This document shows, in pieces, positions 23,567 through 33,394 of a DNA stretch of 43,162 nucleotides; position 1 is the first letter of the stretch, and every line of letters starts with the position of its first letter. The notes under the pieces were generated by a model that was given only the letters and a program-made list of their open reading frames with translations, was not told the origin of the DNA and searched no databases. Source of the stretch: an uncultured Chlorobiaceae bacterium (GTDB lineage: Bacteria > Bacteroidota > Chlorobiia > Chlorobiales > Chlorobiaceae). The DNA lies in NCBI GenBank assembly GCA_903865705.1, contig CAIPKT010000042.1:1-43162 (forward strand), given 5' to 3'. The translations under genes and the position numbers were made by a program.

Positions 23567-23926
23567 CTACTCTTTTGCTTTTGCTCCATTCACAATTTTA
23601 TTGAGTGAATTTGAAAACATACTGAGCGCCATCTCTATAACCTTCAACTGCGAGTTGGTAATATCAACCAGAGCAATACATAAGACATTGAAAGCCTCAA
23701 CAGTATCAATAGGAGATTCTGATGATGCTGGAGCCGCAGCCACGGGCGCGACAGGTTGCGCAGCGGTCGCCAAAGAGCTCTTGGTTTCAGGTTTCGTCAC
23801 GACGTTGCGGCTTTGCTGTTGAACTGCCGGAGGCGTTGAAGGCTTGATGCTGGGCGCCTCCTGATCAGAAGCTGATTTTTTTTTGAATCGGGAAAAAAAT
23901 CCGCCTTTTTGTTCATCATTTGCCAT
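23567..23926 (-). CDS. Hypothetical protein with low-complexity Ala/Pro/Gln linker; possible chlorosome-envelope-like C-terminus
   Basis: 119 aa; charged N-terminus, P/A/Q linker, C-terminal ALVDITNSQLKVIEMALSMFSNSLNKIVNGAKAKE weakly reminiscent of CsmB. Confidence 0.55.
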   Translation of the reverse strand: MANDEQKGGFFSRFKKKSASDQEAPSIKPSTPPAVQQQSRNVVTKPETKSSLATAAQPVAPVAAAPASSESPIDTVEAFNVLCIALVDITNSQLKVIEMALSMFSNSLNKIVNGAKAKE

Positions 23927-24069
23927 AATCGTTATGCATTTGAATGTTTAAAATAATAACCGGTTAATTGCACACTCTTCAGCCTTAATCAAAAAAGCAG
24001 AAGCTCCCTTAGCATCTTGGTATTACCATGTCAATGGGTAATGTAACCAAAAAGAGGCGCAACAGGAGA

Positions 24070-24276
24070 TCATCCATTATGAAAAAGTTTTTCAAGCATA
24101 CAGAATTTTGTAATTTTAGCACATGAAGTGCACTGGTACTCATAACATCGCCTTTTCGTTTCAATAGAACCTCCGGAAACAGCTTGATACGTTCGAACGC
24201 CATCACAACATTTGAAAATATAAGCCACCAAACCACCAATAAAACCAGCTATGCAAAACAGAAGTCGTAAAATCAT
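24070..24276 (-). CDS. Small membrane-anchored Cys-containing hypothetical protein
   Basis: 68 aa; MILRLLFCIAGFIGGLVAYIFKCCDGVRTYQAVSGGSIETKRRCYEYQCTSC... One N-terminal hydrophobic helix; a competing frame overlaps. Confidence 0.35.
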   Translation of the reverse strand: MILRLLFCIAGFIGGLVAYIFKCCDGVRTYQAVSGGSIETKRRCYEYQCTSCAKITKFCMLEKLFHNG

Positions 24277-24451
24277 GCACTATCTGAAGTTCTGTGGTTT
24301 TCGATTTTTAATCAACCATATTTTTAATATCTTTATTTTCTATTTTTCGCAGAACTACGCGAAGAACAGCGGATTTACTTTTGATGCACTTTAACATATC
24401 GCGAAATAAACAGGCATTCTTGATAAATCAATTTATCCTTAGGCAAGTAAT

Positions 24452-25849
24452 ATGACGAATCCTGTCACTCAAAAAAAGTCACTCAAACTGCTGTTTATTG
24501 CTCCAAAAGGGAAAAAAGACTCAAAGACAAACCAGAAGCCCTTATTCCATATGGCCATAGGTGTTCTCGTCAGCCTTACTCCCAAAGAGCACCATATTGA
24601 AATCGCCGATGAACATTTTGAAGACCCCATCAACTATGACGGTGACTACGATTTAGTAGGCATTACCTCTCGAACTATCGACGCAACAAGAGCCTATGAG
24701 ATAGCTGACAAGTTCCGTGAAAAAGGCAAAAAAGTAATCCTGGGCGGCCTTCATGTATCCTTTAATGCTGAAGAAGCCATGGTTCATGCCGACTGCACCG
24801 TGAGCGGAGAAGCAGAAAATTTATGGGCTACCGTTCTTGAAGATGTAAGTCTTGGGTGTTTAAAACCAACATACAACGCGAAAGATTTCCCACCTGTAAC
24901 AAAAATTGTTCCGTTAGATTACGAAAGAATTGCCCAGGCTTCCAAAAGGGGAAAAGTTGACGGGTCAAAATCCATACCGATCTATGTAACACGCGGTTGC
25001 CCCTACGAGTGCTCATTTTGTGTTACACCTAATTTCACCGGGAAGTTATATCGATCACAGAAACCGGAAGACCTGAAACGCCAGATTGAAACTGCTAAAA
25101 AAGTATTTTTCAAAGCAAAATCGAAGTCATCAAAACCTTGGTTTATGCTTTGCGACGAGAACCTCGGTGTTAGCAAAAAAAGGCTATGGGAAACACTGGA
25201 TCTTTTAAAAGGATGCAATATCAACTACAGCGTATTTTTCAGCATGAACTTCCTTGAAGACAAAGAGACGATAAAAAAACTGGTTGAGTCGGGCTGCAAT
25301 ATGGTACTGGTTGGATTTGAGTCTATTAAGCAGAGCACCCTTGAAGCGTATAATAAAGGCCATATAAACTCAGCCGAAAAATTTTCCCAGGTCATTGAAG
25401 AGTGCAGACAAGCCGGACTGAATGTCCAGGGAAACTTCCTTGTCAACCCGGATCTTGACTCCTTTAAGGATATGGACGATCTGGTTCGTTTTGTGGGCAA
25501 GAATAATATCTTTATGCCGATTTTTCAAATCATCACTCCCTATCCGGGTACGAAAATGTACTGGGAATACAAGGAGAAGGGGCTTATCACCGATTATGAT
25601 TGGGAAAAATACAATGCCATAAATCTAGTAATTCACTCAGAACACTACGACCCGATAGCCTTTCAGCATAAGTTCATGACCAGCTATTACAAAACATACT
25701 CATGGATAAATATCGCCAATAGAGTCAAGCATAACCCCTATAAATTGCTCAACCTTATCACAAGTCTTGCATTCAAAAAAAATCTTAAGGAGCAGCTCAA
25801 TACCTTTGAAGTTAACCATAACATCAGAACAACAAGATCCATTAAATAA
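24452..25849 (+). CDS. Radical SAM protein with N-terminal B12-binding-like domain (BchE-like architecture)
   Basis: CPYECSFC (CX3CX2C) radical SAM motif; N-terminal [13 protein letters not shown]...[22 protein letters not shown] resembles B12-binding/BchE-like proteins; 465 aa. Confidence 0.88.
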
Positions 25850-25854
25850 CAGAC

Positions 25855-25971
25855 GTGCAGAATTTTATAGACTATACCACACTTGTCGCACCCGTAGTTT
25901 TTTACCTGTCCGGTATTATTATAGTTGTGATGCTAAACATGTTTATCGGAAAAAAGGCCGCCCCGAAATAA
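25855..25971 (+). CDS. 38-aa single-pass transmembrane microprotein
   Basis: GTG start 5 nt after the radical SAM stop: VQNFIDYTTLVAPVVFYLSGIIIVVMLNMFIGKKAAPK*. Absent from the ORF track. Confidence 0.45.
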   Translation: MQNFIDYTTLVAPVVFYLSGIIIVVMLNMFIGKKAAPK

Positions 25972-25985
25972 TCCAGCTTTAAGAA

Positions 25986-26150
25986 TTAAGGCAAGGAGTA
26001 ACCTCGGGCAGCCGCCTTTAACAACTGGATTTTGCTGTTTATTCCTTCCGGCAATGCGTTGCTGACTTTATGCTCCAGCCCCTTGGAGGTAGAGTCGTCA
26101 AACCACGGCGCGCCGTTTTCCGGCACCTGGCTTACCTGACTGCTTCGGCC
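25986..26150 (-). pseudogene. Transposase C-terminal remnant (ISL3-like)
   Basis: Reverse strand reads ...KGLEHKVSNALPEGINSKIQLLKAAARGYSLP*, resembling the ISL3-type C-terminal motif (N.K.Q.LK..ARGY); no intact N-terminus. Confidence 0.6.
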
Positions 26151-26320
26151 CAAAGCTTCTTAGGGTGTCTATTATTATTGTTGCACGTTCAGAGCCCCAA
26201 TAATGGTTAAAATATCAACCATTTGAATCATGATCCAAACCATCAAACCTTGGAGACGGATGCCCCGGATATTTTTCTTTTTTTGATCCGGACTTATTGG
26301 TTAACTTCTTGATTTTACAA

Positions 26321-26335
26321 TTGATTATCAATCAA
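26321..26335. promoter_or_regulatory. Inverted repeat upstream of the Nif11-like gene
   Basis: TTGATT-ATC-AATCAA palindrome just upstream of the AAAGGAG Shine-Dalgarno sequence. Confidence 0.4.
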
Positions 26336-26354
26336 AAAAAGGAGAACTATTCAT

Positions 26355-26576
26355 ATGTCACAGGACTCTGCAAAGTTGTTTCTTGCAAAAATGAAGCAGG
26401 ACAAGGAATTGTCTGACAAGATGCACAATGCTACGACAAAAGATACCCGCTGGGCAATCATTGAGCAGGAAGGCTTCGAGTTCTCCAGAGAAGAGCTTGA
26501 TCATGCAACGGTAACAGAATTGAATCACTTTGAACGATGGAGCTGGGAAGCGAAGTTGCTCGCTGACTGGCTCTGA
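26355..26576 (+). CDS. Nif11-family leader-like peptide
   Basis: 73 aa; MSQDSAKLFLAKMKQDKELSDKMHNATTKDTRWAIIEQEGFEFSREELDHA fits the Nif11 pattern. Confidence 0.75.
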   Translation: MSQDSAKLFLAKMKQDKELSDKMHNATTKDTRWAIIEQEGFEFSREELDHATVTELNHFERWSWEAKLLADWL

Positions 26577-26675
26577 CCTCTACCTGAGTTAAGCGATTCT
26601 TAATAAAAAAGCCCATGTCAATTCCCTGCCGCACCCTCCTCCGATAGCACGGCATGACATGATCAGAACAAAAAA

Positions 26676-26714
26676 ATAGCCGTTTACCATCGATAAAGCA
26701 TGGTAAACGGCTAT
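26676..26714 (-). terminator. Strong Rho-independent terminator
   Basis: Perfect 15-bp stem atagccgtttaccat/atggtaaacggctat, 9-nt loop; U-tract on the - strand, downstream of the radical SAM gene ending at 26738. Confidence 0.85.
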
Positions 26715-26737
26715 TGCAACTATGCGGTTCTAAACCG

Positions 26738-27943
26738 TTAAACAGGATATGCTGCAGGTAGTTCATAACCCTGATCATACAATCTGCGTGCGATCACATC
26801 AGCAGTCAACATAATGTACTGAGAACGTCCCATTCGCGTATAACCATGCCTGTGATCCATAGCAAGGGGCATATCGAGACGATCCTCATATTTAAAATAC
26901 AGATCTGAGATTTTTTCTGATGCCTCGACCAGCCAATCTGCATTTGGGGGTGGCATTCTGAACATGTCTGCACCCGGAACAGGTTGATAGACGAGCATAT
27001 TAGGGTAAACACCTTTCGACAAACGCTCTTCAACACCTTCCAACAGATAATTCATAGGCTCAAGCCCCATAAGAATAAAGCTCGTGGTACCCCGGCCGGG
27101 ACCAAATATTTCAACTGAAGCATCCTGAGCCGCAAGCCAGTATTCAAGGGGGTAAGTTGCATTTTTTCCGGGACAGATCGCCTTGAAATAGTCCGGATGT
27201 GTCACTTCAAGATCAAATTCAGTTGAATTAATGCCAGAAGCTTTCCAGCGCTCCATCTCCTTGAAATCATCAGGAGGATACAAATTCGCCGTAATATGCA
27301 ATTCATTAAATATCTCAGGACTCAACTGCTCACGCAATGGGGCCATAACAATTTCAACAAGTTCGGAAACTTGTGCCCGTCTTTCGGGTGCAACAAGCCC
27401 TCCGATAATGACCAAGGTCCCACGCCATCCGTGATCCGTTGCTATTTTTACAGCTTCTGCCTGCTCTTTTGCCAATGCCTCAATCTTGGAAAACGGCATT
27501 TTTGCAAGGTCCTGTCCTACCGAAACATGCTGATTAGCAAAGAAAAAACAGAATTTGCATGATTTTCCGGTATTGTTATTGTCACAACTGTAACTGTAAT
27601 GAATATTGATAATATCCTGGTTCATCCCTATTACCGCAGCATTAACTGGACGACCGTTGCTTAACACTCCGTCACGCCAAGAAAACCACTCCTGCATTCT
27701 TCCGCTTGCAAGATGTTTTCCGCAGTCATAAAACTCCACGTCATCACCATTAACCTGCACTTCAAGACGGCTATACGGCTCTTGACGCACAAGAGTCGCC
27801 AGATCGCTTCCATTGAATACCATAGCGCGAAACGGGTTGTATCCCATTGTCGGCGATTTATTTACAGTCACCTTCGCCCCCTCAGAAAGCAGGCGTGCCT
27901 TTAAATGAATGTCCGCCTCTGTAATTACTCTCTTTGTATTCAT
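26738..27943 (-). CDS. Radical SAM protein with atypical CX8CX2C motif; candidate bacteriochlorophyll-modifying enzyme
   Basis: YSYSCDNNNTGKSCKFCFFFANQ; GTLVIIGGLVAPERR; 401 aa; no B12 domain visible; beside the BchF-like gene. Confidence 0.75.
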   Translation of the reverse strand: MNTKRVITEADIHLKARLLSEGAKVTVNKSPTMGYNPFRAMVFNGSDLATLVRQEPYSRLEVQVNGDDVEFYDCGKHLASGRMQEWFSWRDGVLSNGRPVNAAVIGMNQDIINIHYSYSCDNNNTGKSCKFCFFFANQHVSVGQDLAKMPFSKIEALAKEQAEAVKIATDHGWRGTLVIIGGLVAPERRAQVSELVEIVMAPLREQLSPEIFNELHITANLYPPDDFKEMERWKASGINSTEFDLEVTHPDYFKAICPGKNATYPLEYWLAAQDASVEIFGPGRGTTSFILMGLEPMNYLLEGVEERLSKGVYPNMLVYQPVPGADMFRMPPPNADWLVEASEKISDLYFKYEDRLDMPLAMDHRHGYTRMGRSQYIMLTADVIARRLYDQGYELPAAYPV

Positions 27944-28194
27944 AGCATAGAAATATTATTGCTTGTTAAAAAGATTCTGAATAGCACTTTCCCTTCAAAG
28001 GGAGCACCTGATTTCTATCCTTAACAGAAAATTCACCTTAACTCTATTCTGTATGTATCCGTGATTACATTTAATCTTTATAGATCAATTCCCCGAAGCT
28101 TTGCTTCATGAATGAATTCTATTAAAAAATAAATAATACCCTGTCGCTCTGCTGCGATGATGCTTTATAAATACAATATAAAAGCCCAATTTTA

Positions 28195-28428
28195 TTAGCC
28201 ATTTGCAGTTTTACTGAGTGGCAACTTCTTTTGATGAAGAGAGTTAATGAAAAAACCAAAAAAATAAATCACCAAATATCCAAACACCAAGACACCTGCA
28301 AACAATAAGTGGTCCGCAACGGTAACAATATAGCATGAATCCCAAACCATACCTATCAAAATTAACCAACCGATACCGATGTATAAAAACGTCTTGTTCC
28401 ATAAAGCGTTAAAATCACCTGTCAGCAT
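28195..28428 (-). CDS. Small integral membrane protein (about 2 TM)
   Basis: 77 aa; FLYIGIGWLILIGMVW and HLLFAGVLVFGYLVIYFFGFFI; same strand, downstream of the BchF-like gene. Confidence 0.5.
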   Translation of the reverse strand: MLTGDFNALWNKTFLYIGIGWLILIGMVWDSCYIVTVADHLLFAGVLVFGYLVIYFFGFFINSLHQKKLPLSKTANG

Positions 28429-28544
28429 AAAAAAAGTTGTTTAGAGTTTTAATCAACTACCCCATAGCTGGGCATGGGGTATGAGTTCATGTTTAAGAAC
28501 TCATTCACGAAGCCGGGCTTAGTAAGAATATGTTTTATAACGAT

Positions 28545-29015
28545 TCAAGCATGACCCTGCAACGAGTGCCTCTCGCCCCTTTTTTCAAGACTTATTCTCA
28601 CAAGATACTGCACAGAGTTAGCGCAGTAGACGAAGTATGCTATAAAAGCTGCCCAGACAAGGACCTCTTTAGATGCGCCGGTAAAGGCAAGGAAATAATA
28701 GGGCACAAAGAATATCCCGGCAATAACACTTCCGATATCTTCCAGCATAAATTCTTTTGAGAAGATCCATTTATCAAAAAGTTCCTTTTCAAAATAGGCT
28801 CCGGTATAAAACATAAGAGCAAACATAAATGTTTTAAAAAGAAAAGCAGCGCCCACCCAATAAAAGGGAAATGTTCCACTATCTCTATAGTAGAAATAGG
28901 TTACCGCAACACCGACAAGAAAAGCAACAAACTGAATCGGGGCCAACATAAGCTGTACAGTCGTCCATATTGAGGCGTTTCTTAGTGCAAGCTGTTCCGG
29001 AGTGTAACGAGGCAT
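28545..29015 (-). CDS. bchF: 3-vinyl bacteriochlorophyllide hydratase family (BchF/BchV)
   Basis: MPRYTPEQLALRNASIWTTVQLMLAPIQFVAFLVGVAVTY matches the BchF N-terminal signature; 156 aa membrane protein. BchF versus BchV paralog not resolvable here. Confidence 0.9.
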   Translation of the reverse strand: MPRYTPEQLALRNASIWTTVQLMLAPIQFVAFLVGVAVTYFYYRDSGTFPFYWVGAAFLFKTFMFALMFYTGAYFEKELFDKWIFSKEFMLEDIGSVIAGIFFVPYYFLAFTGASKEVLVWAAFIAYFVYCANSVQYLVRISLEKRGERHSLQGHA

Positions 29016-29341
29016 TTCATTTGGGAATTACGGGTTATCGATAGCTGTTTTAAGTTCGATATTTTAATGAAACTAACGGTATTAACCAAATATTGCATTT
29101 ACAATCGGGAGCAGCCGCGAACCTCTTCATCCGCAGACGCATTGTTCGAAGTTCCTTAGCAAAATAAACCTGTAAACTATTGAATCTCTATAAATCGCAG
29201 TGCTTTGGCGTGCTTTGCGCCCAGGTAAATCACGTAAAACGATCAATAGTGCCTGGTAAAAAACAAAGGCCATCTCTATTTATTCGAGAATGATATATCT
29301 TTATAAAAAGCAATGACTTATATTCATAAAATGAGCATTAT

Positions 29342-29566
29342 ATGCCGTGTTTTCAACGAAAGAGCTCAATTTCGCCCTTTATCATGAAAAACATCAATCC
29401 GTTAGGCATGTTTGACGAGCATTTTCTGCCAGAAAAACTCACAAAACTCAAAGGTCCTCTCGTCAAACTTGAAGCGCATATCGACTGGATGACTATTTTG
29501 GGTGAAATTGTACAACCGTTTCGGGGCAAGTGTACAACGGTGCATCGATTGAAATGGCAAAAATAA
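29342..29566 (+). pseudogene. IS5/IS1182-like transposase N-terminal fragment
   Basis: NPLGMFDEHFLPEKLTKLKGPLVKLEAHIDWMTILGEIVQPF resembles the N-terminus of IS5-type transposases; truncated. Confidence 0.65.
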
Positions 29567-29574
29567 TATAAGGT

Positions 29575-29913
29575 TATTTTTTCTTTCTGAGCGACTCCGC
29601 GTCCGGACCGTGCTTTGCAGTTCCACATTCCTCTTGTTCCCACCCCTTCCCTCCATGGATTCCCCCGCTTTGTTCGCCCGCTTTGTTCGCCCGCTTTGTT
29701 CGCCTGCTTTGTTCGCCCGCTTTGTTCGCCCGCTTCTCCGGTAGTATGGGCCGGTCTGACTTCTCCGTACCGTACATCATCGGCTTTGACTATTAGTCTT
29801 CCCGATGCGACCCGCCAACGACGACAGGTGGTATCGGAGATCTTCCGTTCCCGTGCAGGAGACTTACGTACATGCCAGGGGCTCCGACGACGTGGTGACA
29901 AACCTGGGCGCAC
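29575..29913 (-). mobile_element. Group II intron 5' remnant with truncated maturase/RT N-terminus
   Basis: Reverse strand MMYGTEKSDRPILPEKRANKAG... resembles group II intron RT N-termini (MMHG.EKSD..IVP.KP.NKA). Preceded by TTGGCGGGTCGCATCGGGAAG and a GTGCGCCC candidate 5' end at 29913; catalytic RT domain missing. Confidence 0.6.
29666..29735. repeat. 13-nt tandem repeat, about 5 copies
   Basis: (cgctttgttcgcc)n with one c-to-t variant; encodes ANKAGEQSGRTKR-type repeats on the - strand inside the RT N-terminus. Confidence 0.9.
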
Positions 29914-30350
29914 GCATTAACGCACAGGCTCATATTACCTTCAGCCAACTTGAGAGCATCGGCTCAGGCGACCAACTTAAATTTTGCCACTTTTTGCCTA
30001 CCGGTTGGGGGCCACTACACAATTGAATTTATTTGATTTATAATTGGACGGTAGTGGGATTTTTTCTAAATTATTTAACAAAAAGGTTGCGTCAGTTATT
30101 GTACCTATAGCACTCTGGATAAAGTGAATCGATCAGAGTGACATGGTGGTTTGACTGCAAAAATACTATACAGAAACTTAGTACACAGACAGAACTGTGG
30201 TGAATAACGGGGAAATTTGATAAGTATATTGGGATGGGCCTGCTTTGGATGGTTAGTTTATTTTCAAATAGCTACAATGTGGACTCATTCAAATTCGTGC
30301 AAGTAACTATCAATTTAAAATCTCTTTAACTATTTAGCAATACTTCTATT

Positions 30351-31370
30351 ATGAGCGTCAACGAGTTACTGAAGCAAAATCACAGAGCCACTGAACTTAT
30401 TTTTAAAGGTCTTGTGGAAAGTGGCTGCTTGAAAGCAGCTCTTGAACTTGACCTTTTTACTCACCTTGCTAACGAAGCAAAAGAGATCGAAACATTGGCA
30501 GCCAATGTTGGCGCGATTCCGCAAAGACTCATCATGTTGCTCGAGACCCTGCGGCAAATGGGGATTACTGCCGAAGAGAATGGAAAGTGGAGCCTCACCC
30601 CGTTTACGATTAATATGTTTCTGCCAAACAATGAGCTTCCTAACCTTTATATGACTCCCGTGGCGAAGGCCATGGCGAACCTTTCGGATAATTTTTACAT
30701 GAAAATAGCAGATGCCGTCAAAGGTAACCGGAATTTCAAGGCCGAGGTCGCCTATCCTCCTGTTACGCGAGAAGACAACTGGTATTTTGAAGAAATTCAC
30801 CGTAGCAACGCCCATTTTGCCATCATGCTTCTGCTTGAAGAGGCTGACCTGTCGGCTGCAAAAACCCTCGTAGATGTCGGTGGTGGAATCGGTGATATTT
30901 CTGCCGCCCTTTTAAAAAAGTTTCCTCAGCTTGATTCCACCATTCTGAATCTTCCCGGTGCGGTTGAACTGGTAAATGAAAATGCTATCGAAAAAGGAGT
31001 TGGAGCTCGTTTGAGAGGCGTAGCCGTAGATATATACAAGGACGTATACCCTAAAGCGGATGCCGTCATGTTCTGCAGAATCCTTTATTCAGCAAATGAG
31101 CAATTAACCAAAATGCTCTGCCAAAAAGCCTATGACGCTCTTCCACCAGGCGGGAAAGTGCTCATCCTCGACATGATTATCGATGATCAGGAAAACCCGA
31201 ACTTTGACTATCTGAGCCACTATGTCCTTGGTGCAGGTATGCCGTTTTCGGTACTCGGCTTCAAGGAGCAGAGCGCCTACAAGGAAATTCTTGAATCAAT
31301 CGGCTTCAGCAATGTTCGCACAGTCAGGAAGTACGGCCACTTGTTGTGTGAGGCGGTAAAAGCGGTTTGA
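30351..31370 (+). CDS. bchU: Bacteriochlorophyllide C-20 methyltransferase
   Basis: 339 aa; LVDVGGGIGDISAALLKKFPQLDSTILNLPGAVELVNENAIEKGV and FDYLSHYVLGAGMPFSVLGFKEQ match remembered C. tepidum BchU closely. Confidence 0.95.
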   Translation: MSVNELLKQNHRATELIFKGLVESGCLKAALELDLFTHLANEAKEIETLAANVGAIPQRLIMLLETLRQMGITAEENGKWSLTPFTINMFLPNNELPNLYMTPVAKAMANLSDNFYMKIADAVKGNRNFKAEVAYPPVTREDNWYFEEIHRSNAHFAIMLLLEEADLSAAKTLVDVGGGIGDISAALLKKFPQLDSTILNLPGAVELVNENAIEKGVGARLRGVAVDIYKDVYPKADAVMFCRILYSANEQLTKMLCQKAYDALPPGGKVLILDMIIDDQENPNFDYLSHYVLGAGMPFSVLGFKEQSAYKEILESIGFSNVRTVRKYGHLLCEAVKAV

Positions 31371-31521
31371 TCAGTACGGAAATTTTTGTACTGTGCAAAT
31401 TAGATCATATTTATAAGTTTGCTCATATTTGAAAATATTTTAAATTGAGGAAAATAACCTCTTGTAATAACTAGAGTGTTTTAACATATAATTACGCCAA
31501 CAACATTTAATAATATATACC

Positions 31522-31737
31522 ATGGCAAACGAAACCAACAATGATTTTTCTGCATCCATCAGCAATATTGTTGATACATTAACTAAACTTGGACAGCAGC
31601 AGGCTGAAATACTGAACAACACAATCCCAGCGATTGAGCCTTTAGTTAAGACCTGCACAGAACTTATCAGCAATGTACTTGGCAGTGCTAATCAGGCTCT
31701 ACAGAGCTTCTCTGCCTCTATTGCACCAAAAAAGTAA
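31522..31737 (+). CDS. csmF: Chlorosome envelope protein of the CsmB/CsmF family (CsmF-like)
   Basis: 71 aa; MANETNNDFSASISNIVDTL...NQALQSFSASIAPKK; paralog of the CDS at 33112. Confidence 0.7.
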   Translation: MANETNNDFSASISNIVDTLTKLGQQQAEILNNTIPAIEPLVKTCTELISNVLGSANQALQSFSASIAPKK

Positions 31738-31751
31738 GTTGTCTTTTTTTC

Positions 31752-31792
31752 AAAAAAGCACCTTATACGTTGCCGTATAGGGTGCTTTTTTT
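31752..31792 (+). terminator. Rho-independent terminator after the csmF-like gene
   Basis: aaaaaagcaccttatacg-ttgc-cgtatagggtgctttttttt. Confidence 0.9.
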
Positions 31793-31969
31793 TTGTTTTC
31801 TTCAATAGCAAAATATACCGTCGAACGATTAACGAACGCAAGTACGCATTGCTTTGCCATCGGCAATGGCTCGTTGTCGCTAACCCACTGTCTGCAAGTA
31901 TACTCATAGGGATAGACCGGATTTTTAAGCCAGTCCAACTCGACCTTTAACCAGCTCAAGTAATAGCCG

Positions 31970-32596
31970 TTACGGAGCGCCAAAGCTGCCCTTCGCTTCT
32001 TCAAGCACAGCCAGGGTAATCTCCTTATATCCCATATCTTCGGCATACTCTTCAGCCATTGTCCTGAACTTTTCGTGGACAAAAGAGGGCATGGACTGAT
32101 AACACTCCTGGGCCTCTTCGGTCCACTTCGCCGACAAAGCTTTGGATTTCGGGCCTCTATTGTACTCATAAAGCAAATCCTCAACAAACGAATCAATAAG
32201 ATCCCCATCTGAAAAAGCATCGGGTGCAAAAATTTTTTCAACAAGAATTTTATTGCGGATAAGATGGATTTTTAACTGTGGCAGATAAAAAAGCGTCGCT
32301 GTGGACTGCGAGCTTCCGCAGGTGAGAAAGAGCGCAATCTTTTTCCTTTTAAGATTTATCTTCAGATTGCCTTGGATCAATGCGCCCAAAAGCTGTGAGG
32401 CAACGATAAAGTTGTAGACTGGCGCGCCAAGAATAACCAGATCAAAATCCTTGACAAAACTGTAGTCTGCCATCGCCTTGCATTTTGCTTTTTCCACATA
32501 AACTCCTGACTCCGCCAGACTGAGGCCGATGGCATCAATAACCGCTTCCGTAGAACCAGTTGAAGTTCCCGTATCATACAATATAATCGCTTTCAT
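31970..32596 (-). CDS. Flavodoxin-like protein
   Basis: MKAIILYDTGTSTGSTEAVIDAIGLSLAESG and DLVILGAPVYNF; ATG at 32596. Confidence 0.85.
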   Translation of the reverse strand: MKAIILYDTGTSTGSTEAVIDAIGLSLAESGVYVEKAKCKAMADYSFVKDFDLVILGAPVYNFIVASQLLGALIQGNLKINLKRKKIALFLTCGSSQSTATLFYLPQLKIHLIRNKILVEKIFAPDAFSDGDLIDSFVEDLLYEYNRGPKSKALSAKWTEEAQECYQSMPSFVHEKFRTMAEEYAEDMGYKEITLAVLEEAKGSFGAP

Positions 32597-33111
32597 TGGA
32601 CAATGAGTAATATTTAGAGGGTAAAAGTATTCTTTATATACACTTAACCACATAAAACGTCATGCATACCTGATCAAAACTCTCTATAAACCAACACACT
32701 TTTCTGCCCCCACCCTCAATATTCATGCATGTTGCGTTTTCCCTTTAATCTTTATGGAGAAGATACCGAAAAGAAAAAAGATAAAGAGAGAACGCGAATC
32801 TGTAAAACTAGAAATTACACTCTTTTTGGAGCCATGCGCCAAAAAAGAAGGATTTGTCAATACCCGCAAACAGTTCAAGGCACGAGAAAACCGGACTGAT
32901 TGATTGACGGCGGGGAGCGTTTTGAACTGCTGAATCAAGGCTCATAAATTTAACTTCGCAATTCGGGGCAAAGTGACATTAAAGTAATGCATGCGCCGTT
33001 TTCTTTTTGCTCTATTGTTGAAAATGTTATAATTTGTTCAAAATAGGTAAAAGATACCTGAAACTAATTTCGACCAACATTCGGCTTAATAACCATAAAA
33101 CAAAACACACT

Positions 33112-33339
33112 ATGTCAAACGGATCAAACATTGATTTATCAGGTGCTATCAACAGCTTGGTTGATGCAGCAGGAAAGATTTTCCAGCTACAGATTGATTT
33201 CCTGAGCAATAGCCTTAACGTTCTTTCAAATGCGTCAGGTCCTATTGCCAAAGCAGCAACAGATCTTATTACTAGCCTTGCAAATACGACCACACAGGCT
33301 TTGCAGAGTCTTTCATCAGCCATTGCTCCTAAAAAGTAA
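33112..33339 (+). CDS. csmB: Chlorosome envelope protein B
   Basis: 75 aa; MSNGSNIDLSGAINSLVDAAGKIFQLQIDFLSNSLNVLSN...TTQALQSLSSAIAPKK fits CsmB. Confidence 0.85.
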   Translation: MSNGSNIDLSGAINSLVDAAGKIFQLQIDFLSNSLNVLSNASGPIAKAATDLITSLANTTTQALQSLSSAIAPKK

Positions 33340-33353
33340 GGGCTATTATTTTT

Positions 33354-33394
33354 AGAAAAAGCACCTTATACCTTTAGTATGGGGTGCTTTTTTT
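33354..33394 (+). terminator. Rho-independent terminator after csmB
   Basis: gaaaaagcaccttata..tatggggtgctttttttt. Confidence 0.88.

What the first reader, a model, noticed from the sequence alone, without database searches (positions are those of the whole stretch)
24452..33394. Candidate bacteriochlorophyll/chlorosome modification island scarred by mobile elements
Within about 9 kb lie a B12-type radical SAM protein, a membrane microprotein, a Nif11-like peptide, an atypical radical SAM protein, a BchF/BchV-family hydratase with a small membrane protein, BchU, and CsmF/CsmB-like chlorosome proteins. They are interspersed with transposase and group II intron relics. Established: BchF/BchV act at C-3 and BchU methylates C-20 of chlorosome BChls; BChl e (C-7 formyl) of brown green sulfur bacteria needs the radical SAM enzyme BciD. 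Inference: this is a specialised, possibly horizontally moved, antenna-pigment module including BciD and undescribed partners.
Basis: partly seen in the sequence, partly recalled or inferred. Interest (0 to 1): 0.85.

Follow-up and report, generated by a model that had tools for sequence, protein, structure and literature searches.

The report
Travelling gene cassette for brown antenna pigment
This stretch of a green sulfur bacterium's DNA holds the known genes for turning its light-harvesting pigment into the "brown" form used in very dim water, packed as a cassette that has moved between species and, unlike the described versions, lacks the carotenoid gene (cruB) that normally goes with it.

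Summary
The window carries an intact bacteriochlorophyll e (BChl e) module: bchQ, a Nif11-type small protein, bciD, a two-helix membrane protein, a third vinyl hydratase (bchF2) and bchU, with ISL3, IS5-like and group II intron relics. BciD is 86% identical over its full length to the proven enzyme of Chlorobaculum limnaeum and occurs in only 9 of 98 Chlorobiales genomes. The B12-type radical SAM protein is not a new partner: it is BchQ, present in all 98.

The module is mobile. Its proteins are 85-91% identical to those of "luteolum" CIII while flanking genes are 55-69%. In three other MAGs the same cassette (enzymes 95-98%) sits in a cobalamin locus beside a Tn3 terminal repeat; in the two checked, the native bchQ and bchU survive only as fragments. 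Remnants of CIII-type genes between Nif11 and bciD show descent from a CIII-like island.

New points: the cassette lacks cruB in four genomes, while at least seven relatives have cruB without bciD, so the two "brown" traits are separable. The Nif11-type protein is conserved only with the BChl e/cruB module. The membrane protein follows every BchV/BchF2 gene checked. Chemistry is inferred from characterised homologues; pigments were not measured.

The parts
24452..25849 (+). bchQ (B12/radical SAM C8(2) methyltransferase); island-type copy and the only bchQ found in this genome
   Evidence: 69% to Cba. tepidum BchQ vs 30% to BchR; tree, nearest the CIII island bchQ; dN/dS 0.14-0.20
26355..26576 (+). 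Nif11-domain small protein (73 aa), convergent with bciD; conserved only with the BChl e/cruB module
   Evidence: PF07862 E 2e-14; 65-96% identity only in 8 bciD genomes plus G047, others <=45%; dN/dS 0.11-0.15; alignment
26738..27943 (-). bciD (radical SAM C7-methyl oxidase; Cys motif C120-X8-C129-X2-C132)
   Evidence: 86% over 401 aa to Cba. limnaeum DSM 1677T BciD; 9 of 98 genomes; motif invariant
28195..28428 (-). two-helix membrane protein, companion of the BchF2/BchV hydratase
   Evidence: homologue directly downstream of 27 of 27 BchV/BchF2 genes examined; conserved LWN, W, C-terminal H
28545..29015 (-). bchF2 (also called bchF3): third C3(1) vinyl hydratase of BChl e producers
   Evidence: PF07284 E 6e-51; groups with the CIII/G048 island copies, 95/90
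30351..31370 (+). bchU (C20 methyltransferase), intact; the only copy in this genome
   Evidence: TIGR02716; PDB 1x19 E 8e-157; single match in G000; dN/dS 0.14
31522..31737 (+). CsmF-like short chlorosome protein carried by the cassette
   Evidence: 86-87% in G085, G073, G078 cassettes; named by resemblance only
31970..32653 (-). flavodoxin fused to BchB C-terminal (PCP_red) domain; native gene of the locus; the moved cassette ends inside it
   Evidence: PF08369 E 1.5e-15, Flavodoxin_5; only its last 40 aa in G085/G073/G078 cassettes
33109..33339 (+). CsmB-like short chlorosome protein, native to the locus
   Evidence: resemblance to the CsmF-like protein (36-48%)
23927..24451 (.). position where relatives carry cruB (between ORF 23567-23926 and bchQ): no cruB, no remnant
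   Evidence: tblastn with 40 CruA/CruB proteins found nothing significant; part matches the cruB-bchQ spacer of relatives; synteny
25989..26153 (-). ISL3 transposase C-terminal relic
   Evidence: PF01610 E 5e-6; NF033550 E 2e-5
29266..29566 (.). dispersed repeat, probably a transposase relic, present in many Chlorobium genomes
   Evidence: 74-81% copies elsewhere
29598..29964 (.). insertion absent from the three related cassettes; holds a 13-bp tandem repeat (29660-29735)
29878..30057 (-). probable group II intron domain relic
   Evidence: RF02005 27 bits, E 1e-4, below gathering score
31811..31955 (.). dispersed about 145-bp repeat, absent from the cassette copy in G085
   Evidence: 84-90% copies elsewhere

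Best explanation
This is a horizontally moved BChl e conversion cassette. Shown by sequence: it carries intact bchQ, bchF2 with its membrane companion, bciD and bchU under purifying selection, and it is the genome's only source of bchQ, bciD and bchU. Inferred from characterised homologues: BchQ adds methyl groups at C8(2), BchF2 hydrates the C3 vinyl group (probably of heavily methylated substrates), BchU methylates C20 and BciD oxidises the C7 methyl to formyl, so the host makes BChl e suited to dim blue-green light. Shown: the cassette descends from a CIII-like brown island, lacks cruB and the neighbouring aldolase genes, and later moved as a unit to a new locus in a second lineage, next to a Tn3-family element, where it displaced native bchQ and bchU. 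Inferred: because only CruA remains, these strains should pair BChl e with chlorobactene instead of isorenieratene.
For: BciD is 86% identical to the biochemically proven enzyme and restricted to 9 of 98 Chlorobiales and 9 of 395 phylum genomes. Window vs CIII: bciD 91%, Nif11 88%, bchQ 85-93%, against kinase 55%, NTP-transferase 59%, TolC 62%. Window vs G078/G085/G073: cassette enzymes 95-98%, membrane protein 90%, but CruA only 77-80%. The cassette sits in a cobalamin locus in G085/G073/G078 with an identical right junction at a 38-bp Tn3-type terminal repeat and a Tn3 transposase (E 1e-70). Native bchQ and bchU survive only as fragments in G078 and G085. A CIII-type aldolase remnant lies between Nif11 and bciD (84%, 68 aa). 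CruA/CruB tree: only CruA in the four genomes, and the cruB site in the window is contiguous and empty. dN/dS is 0.11-0.21 for all enzymes and Nif11.
Against: Most of the genomes are draft or metagenome assemblies; strain mixing could hide cruB, though four separate assemblies agree. No pigment was measured. The role of bchF2 is unknown in the literature (PMC7242693). How the Tn3 element took part is unresolved, since its terminal repeat flanks the cassette on one side only. Pigment capacity is read from homology.
Confidence: 0.85

Rival explanations
1. It is the ordinary, already described BChl e gene cluster (bciD, bchF2/bchF3, cruB), inherited as usual, with nothing new.
For: bciD and bchF2 are the published brown-specific genes (PMC3613366, PMC6639628); other named strains show the canonical order cruB-Nif11-bciD-mem-bchF2-bchQ.
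Against: cruB is absent from the whole genome and from its site; bchQ lies on the opposite side and bchU is included; the cassette moved to a second locus in three MAGs.
Confidence: 0.1
2. The cassette is decaying: bciD and partners are leftovers in a strain turning green.
For: cruB and the aldolases are missing, mobile relics are many, and the membrane protein evolves fast (dN/dS 0.52).
Against: All enzyme frames are intact with dN/dS 0.11-0.21; the cassette holds the only bchQ and bchU; it spread into another lineage and replaced native genes.
Confidence: 0.05
3. The Nif11 protein is a RiPP precursor and one of the two radical SAM proteins modifies it, so part of the block is a peptide pathway unrelated to pigment.
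For: TIGR03798 leader_Nif11 is over its cut-off (48 vs 32 bits); two radical SAM genes are adjacent.
Against: No Gly-Gly cleavage site, no Cys/Ser/Thr-rich variable core; the C-terminal tail is its most conserved part. Both radical SAM proteins have known tetrapyrrole homologues. BciD-like arrays elsewhere carry no Nif11.
Confidence: 0.07

Closest known systems
BChl e gene cluster of Chlorobaculum limnaeum DSM 1677T and other brown green sulfur bacteria (bciD, bchF2/bchF3, cruB)
   Same: bciD 86%, bchF2 69%, membrane companion 43%, Nif11 64%, bchQ 72%; same RND-TolC to kinase neighbourhood
   Different: no cruB; bchQ on the other side of Nif11; bchU and a CsmF-like gene included; mobile relics; in relatives moved to the cob locus
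Chlorobium (Pelodictyon) luteolum CIII island, the genome behind the cited report of BChl e cluster transfer (paper itself not readable here)
   Same: closest relative: bciD 91%, Nif11 88%, bchQ 85-93%, bchF2 70%
   Different: CIII keeps cruB and two aldolase genes between Nif11 and bciD; its island bchQ appears frame-shifted
BchQ-BchV locus of Chlorobaculum tepidum TLS
   Same: BchQ 69%; BchV followed by the same kind of small membrane protein
   Different: no bciD or cruB and no close Nif11 relative; bchQ and bchV divergent, bchU elsewhere
IsrB/NFL-associated radical SAM proteins (isethionate assimilation, PMC11423573) and the BciD-like arrays in Chlorobium
   Same: same variant radical SAM family; the Chlorobium array members share the CX8CX2C motif
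   Different: only 28-33% identity; one array beside a nitrogenase-like gene, no Nif11, no bchF seen

Membership tests
BciD (C7-methyl oxidase) | full-length similarity to characterised Cba. limnaeum BciD | tested here: met
   86% over 401 aa; G001 has exactly the published length of DSM 1677T, 2,797,276 bp
BciD (C7-methyl oxidase) | restricted to brown (BChl e) strains | tested here: met
   9 of 98 Chlorobiales; all other matches <=33% identity. The colour of the MAG hosts is not known
BciD (C7-methyl oxidase) | radical SAM cluster cysteines | tested here: met
   C120-X8-C129-X2-C132 invariant in the orthologues
BciD (C7-methyl oxidase) | oxidises C7 methyl to formyl | not testable with these tools
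   inferred from the orthologue
canonical BChl e/isorenieratene cluster | bciD with a third BCHF-family hydratase | tested here: met
   G000 has three BCHF genes; the island one groups with CIII
canonical BChl e/isorenieratene cluster | cruB in the cluster | tested here: not met
   single CruA only; site empty
BchQ | groups with Cba. tepidum BchQ and not BchR | tested here: met
BchU | equivalog model and match to solved BchU | tested here: met
   TIGR02716 472 bits (cut-off 276); 1x19 E 8e-157
BchF/BchV vinyl hydratase | PF07284/TIGR02020 above cut-off | tested here: met
   172.6 and 152 bits
Nif11-type RiPP precursor | leader_Nif11 profile above cut-off | tested here: met
   47.8 vs 32.3 bits
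Nif11-type RiPP precursor | Gly-Gly-type cleavage site and hypervariable core | tested here: not met
   tail EELDHATV..LNHFERW.WEAKLLADWL is nearly invariant, no such site
Tn3 composite transposon | Tn3 terminal repeats on both sides of the cassette | tested here: not met
   38-bp repeat at the right end only in G085/G073/G078; none in the window

The most novel reading that the evidence does not exclude
The 73-aa Nif11-type protein is a dedicated partner of the BChl e pathway (for example binding BciD or handing it bacteriochlorophyllide), and the small membrane protein is the membrane anchor or pigment-binding partner of BchV/BchF2, so that BChl e antenna synthesis uses two small proteins not so far assigned to it.
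Probability: 0.3. Interest if true: 0.7.

Novelty: new variant of a known kind. Interest (0 to 1): 0.57.

Why it matters
BChl e and isorenieratene are treated as one "brown" package: bciD and cruB are reported to occur together, and isorenieratene residues in rocks are read as a sign of low-light green sulfur bacteria. Here bciD travels without cruB in four genomes, while at least seven close relatives have cruB without bciD at the same locus, so colour type and carotenoid biomarker can come apart. The cassette also shows how a whole low-light antenna can be acquired in one step, bringing its own bchQ and bchU and replacing the host's. It names two small proteins whose role can be tested directly in a transformable lab strain.

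Tried and rejected
Nif11-BciD as a general radical SAM/RiPP pairing: BciD-like arrays in seven loci hold no Nif11-like ORF. Phage or plasmid carriage: no relative of BciD in viral contigs; plasmid matches only below 60%, best about 24-28%. A cruB pseudogene at its site: none. BciD structure: AlphaFold model too poor to use (pLDDT 42). Nif11 model (five helices, pLDDT 76) has no significant PDB match. The main earlier papers on the cluster (doi 10.1038/ismej.2016.93; the JBC BciD paper PMC5270479) were not held, so whether they already mention the Nif11 gene could not be checked; a text search for Nif11 with bacteriochlorophyll found nothing relevant. The window genome is not recognisably C. 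phaeoferrooxidans KB01 (2.573 Mb, 116 contigs, against 2.477 Mb, 226 contigs).
Full report
WHAT IS THERE. In order: bchQ (24452-25849 +), an ISL3 transposase relic (25989-26153 -), a Nif11-type protein (26355-26576 +), bciD (26738-27943 -), a 77-aa membrane protein (28195-28428 -), bchF2 (28545-29015 -), repeat and intron relics (29266-30057), bchU (30351-31370 +), a CsmF-like protein (31522-31737 +), a flavodoxin/PCP_red fusion (31970-32653 -) and a CsmB-like protein (33109-33339 +). Relics: ISL3 over the Pfam cut-off, a sub-threshold group II intron fragment, a 13-bp tandem repeat inside a segment absent from relatives, and dispersed repeats found elsewhere in Chlorobium genomes.

BciD. The atypical radical SAM protein has orthologues of 86-98% identity in eight other genomes (nine with this one), and every other match in 98 Chlorobiales is at or below 33%. 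One 86% orthologue lies in a single contig of 2,797,276 bp, exactly the published length of Cba. limnaeum DSM 1677T. The bciD gene of Cba. limnaeum was knocked out, giving green cells without BChl e (PMC3613366), and the recombinant enzyme turns the C7 methyl into a formyl group (PMC7242693). The cysteines form CX8CX2C and are invariant. In a draw of 395 genomes of the phylum only these nine have it.

THE B12 RADICAL SAM PROTEIN IS BchQ. It occurs in all 98 genomes. In the tree BchR is a far outlier and all the rest are BchQ. The window copy is nearest to the island copy of CIII.

THE CANONICAL ISLAND AND HOW THIS ONE DIFFERS. In Cba. limnaeum the order between RND/TolC and a kinase gene is DUF1997, cruB, Nif11, bciD, membrane protein, bchF2, bchQ. 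CIII and G048 are alike; CIII has two aldolase-like genes between Nif11 and bciD. The window has the same outer neighbours but no cruB, bchQ left of Nif11, and bchU plus a CsmF-like gene on the right. In green relatives such as G035 bchQ and bchU are adjacent at this locus, so the module lies between them.

HORIZONTAL MOVEMENT. (i) G026 (CIII) and G048 share island proteins at 97-100% but TolC at 61% and RND at 74%. (ii) Window and CIII share bciD 91%, Nif11 88%, bchQ 85-93%, while kinase, NTP-transferase and TolC are 55-62%. (iii) G078, G085 and G073 carry the cassette with enzymes at 95-98% (membrane protein 90%) while CruA is only 77-80% identical to that of the window genome. There the cassette lies among cobalamin and neighbouring genes (cbiB and pyruvate-carboxylase-like genes on one side, cobO/btuC on the other; gene names from reading the ORFs). 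The right end is identical in all three: inside the flavodoxin/PCP_red gene at window position about 32090, joined to a 38-bp repeat GGGGTCGCTTCAGGAAACGGATTTTAAAGCCCGTTAAG, which looks like a Tn3-family end, with a Tn3 transposase next to it in G085 (E 1e-70). The left end differs (about 23521 in G078, 24298 in G085). A 167-bp piece of cbiB stands on both sides in G085. The flavodoxin fragment shows that a window-like arrangement was the source. A Tn3 copy serving as shared homology is a plausible route, but this is inference. (iv) In G078 and G085 the native locus keeps its flanking genes but only fragments of bchQ or bchU, so the cassette copies replaced them. (v) Between Nif11 and bciD in G085 and G078 lie remnants of the CIII aldolase gene (84% over 68 aa): the window-type cassette descends from a CIII-type island.

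NO cruB. CruA and CruB separate cleanly (99/97 and 99/96). G000, G078, G085 and G073 have only CruA. In the window the cruB position is contiguous and empty, with no remnant found with 40 CruA/CruB queries, although part of the usual cruB-bchQ spacer is kept. Conversely G054, G056, G059, G062, G066, G068 and G079 have a true CruB at that locus as well as CruA, and no bciD. The literature held reports that bciD and cruB co-occur (PMC10158934) and says that brown strains "usually" make isorenieratene (PMC5473272). Both dissociated genotypes therefore appear to be new. The pigment consequences are inferred. Whether cruB was lost by the window lineage before or after the transfer is not settled.

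SMALL PARTNERS. The Nif11-type protein is 65-96% identical in eight of the nine bciD genomes (in the ninth, G073, the contig ends within bciD) and in G047, where it lies beside cruB at a contig end. Elsewhere the best matches are 45% or less. It is under purifying selection (dN/dS 0.11-0.15), and its C-terminal tail is the most conserved part, with no leader-peptidase site, so it is unlikely to be a RiPP precursor. It is convergent with bciD and, in canonical islands, divergent from cruB. A role with BciD is possible, although recombinant BciD is sufficient in vitro (PMC7242693). The membrane protein follows 27 of 27 BchV/BchF2 genes examined, but no homologue was found beside the one BchF-type gene examined. 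It has two predicted helices and a conserved C-terminal histidine. A companion role with the hydratase is inference.

HOW IT PROBABLY WORKS. BchQ, BchF2, BchU and BciD act on different side groups of the same chlorosome pigment, so carrying them together gives a host a complete low-light BChl e antenna in one transfer. A BChl e photoferrotroph from Kabuno Bay is reported to make highly alkylated BChl e homologues (PMC4562300), in keeping with bchQ travelling in the module. Steps shown: gene identity, integrity, selection, transfer, replacement, absence of cruB. Steps inferred: enzyme activities in this host, BChl e with chlorobactene, the Tn3 route, the roles of the two small proteins and of bchF2.

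LIMITS. Most of these genomes are draft or metagenome assemblies without pigment data. The main earlier papers on the cluster were not readable here. Chlorosome protein names rest on resemblance.

Noticed in passing
G054, G056, G059, G062, G066, G068, G079 (L184-L187, L196, L199, L200): True cruB beside CruA but no bciD, at the same locus: predicted BChl c/d with isorenieratene, which bears on isorenieratane as a biomarker.
   Followed up: partly
L263 (G037:C26), L264 (G061:C8), L265-L269: Arrays of several BciD-like CX8CX2C radical SAM genes (28-33% to BciD), one beside a nitrogenase-like NifH gene, in Chlorobium MAGs; reminiscent of IsrB of isethionate assimilation. A 2013 paper stated that green strains lack bciD paralogues.
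   Followed up: partly
window 31970-32653 -: Flavodoxin fused to the C-terminal PCP_red domain of the protochlorophyllide reductase subunit BchB; conserved at this locus across Chlorobium, function unknown.
   Followed up: partly
G047:C23:183-2114 (L188): Nif11-type gene and cruB at a contig start with no bciD found in the genome: either an assembly gap or a bciD loss that kept Nif11.
   Followed up: no
L011:7377-8725: The island bchQ of CIII reads in two overlapping frames, apparently frame-shifted; CIII also has a native bchQ (L193).
   Followed up: no
G062, G066: No bchU match of ortholog strength: possibly BChl d producers.
   Followed up: no
window 28070-28156 and 28451-28548: Diverged inverted copies (72%) of a dispersed repeat flank the membrane-protein gene; many copies elsewhere in Chlorobium genomes.
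   Followed up: partly
L260:1790-3907 (G078:C71): Element bounded by inverted 38-bp Tn3-type repeats but holding an ISAzo13-type/Fic ORF where a Tn3 transposase would be expected.
   Followed up: no
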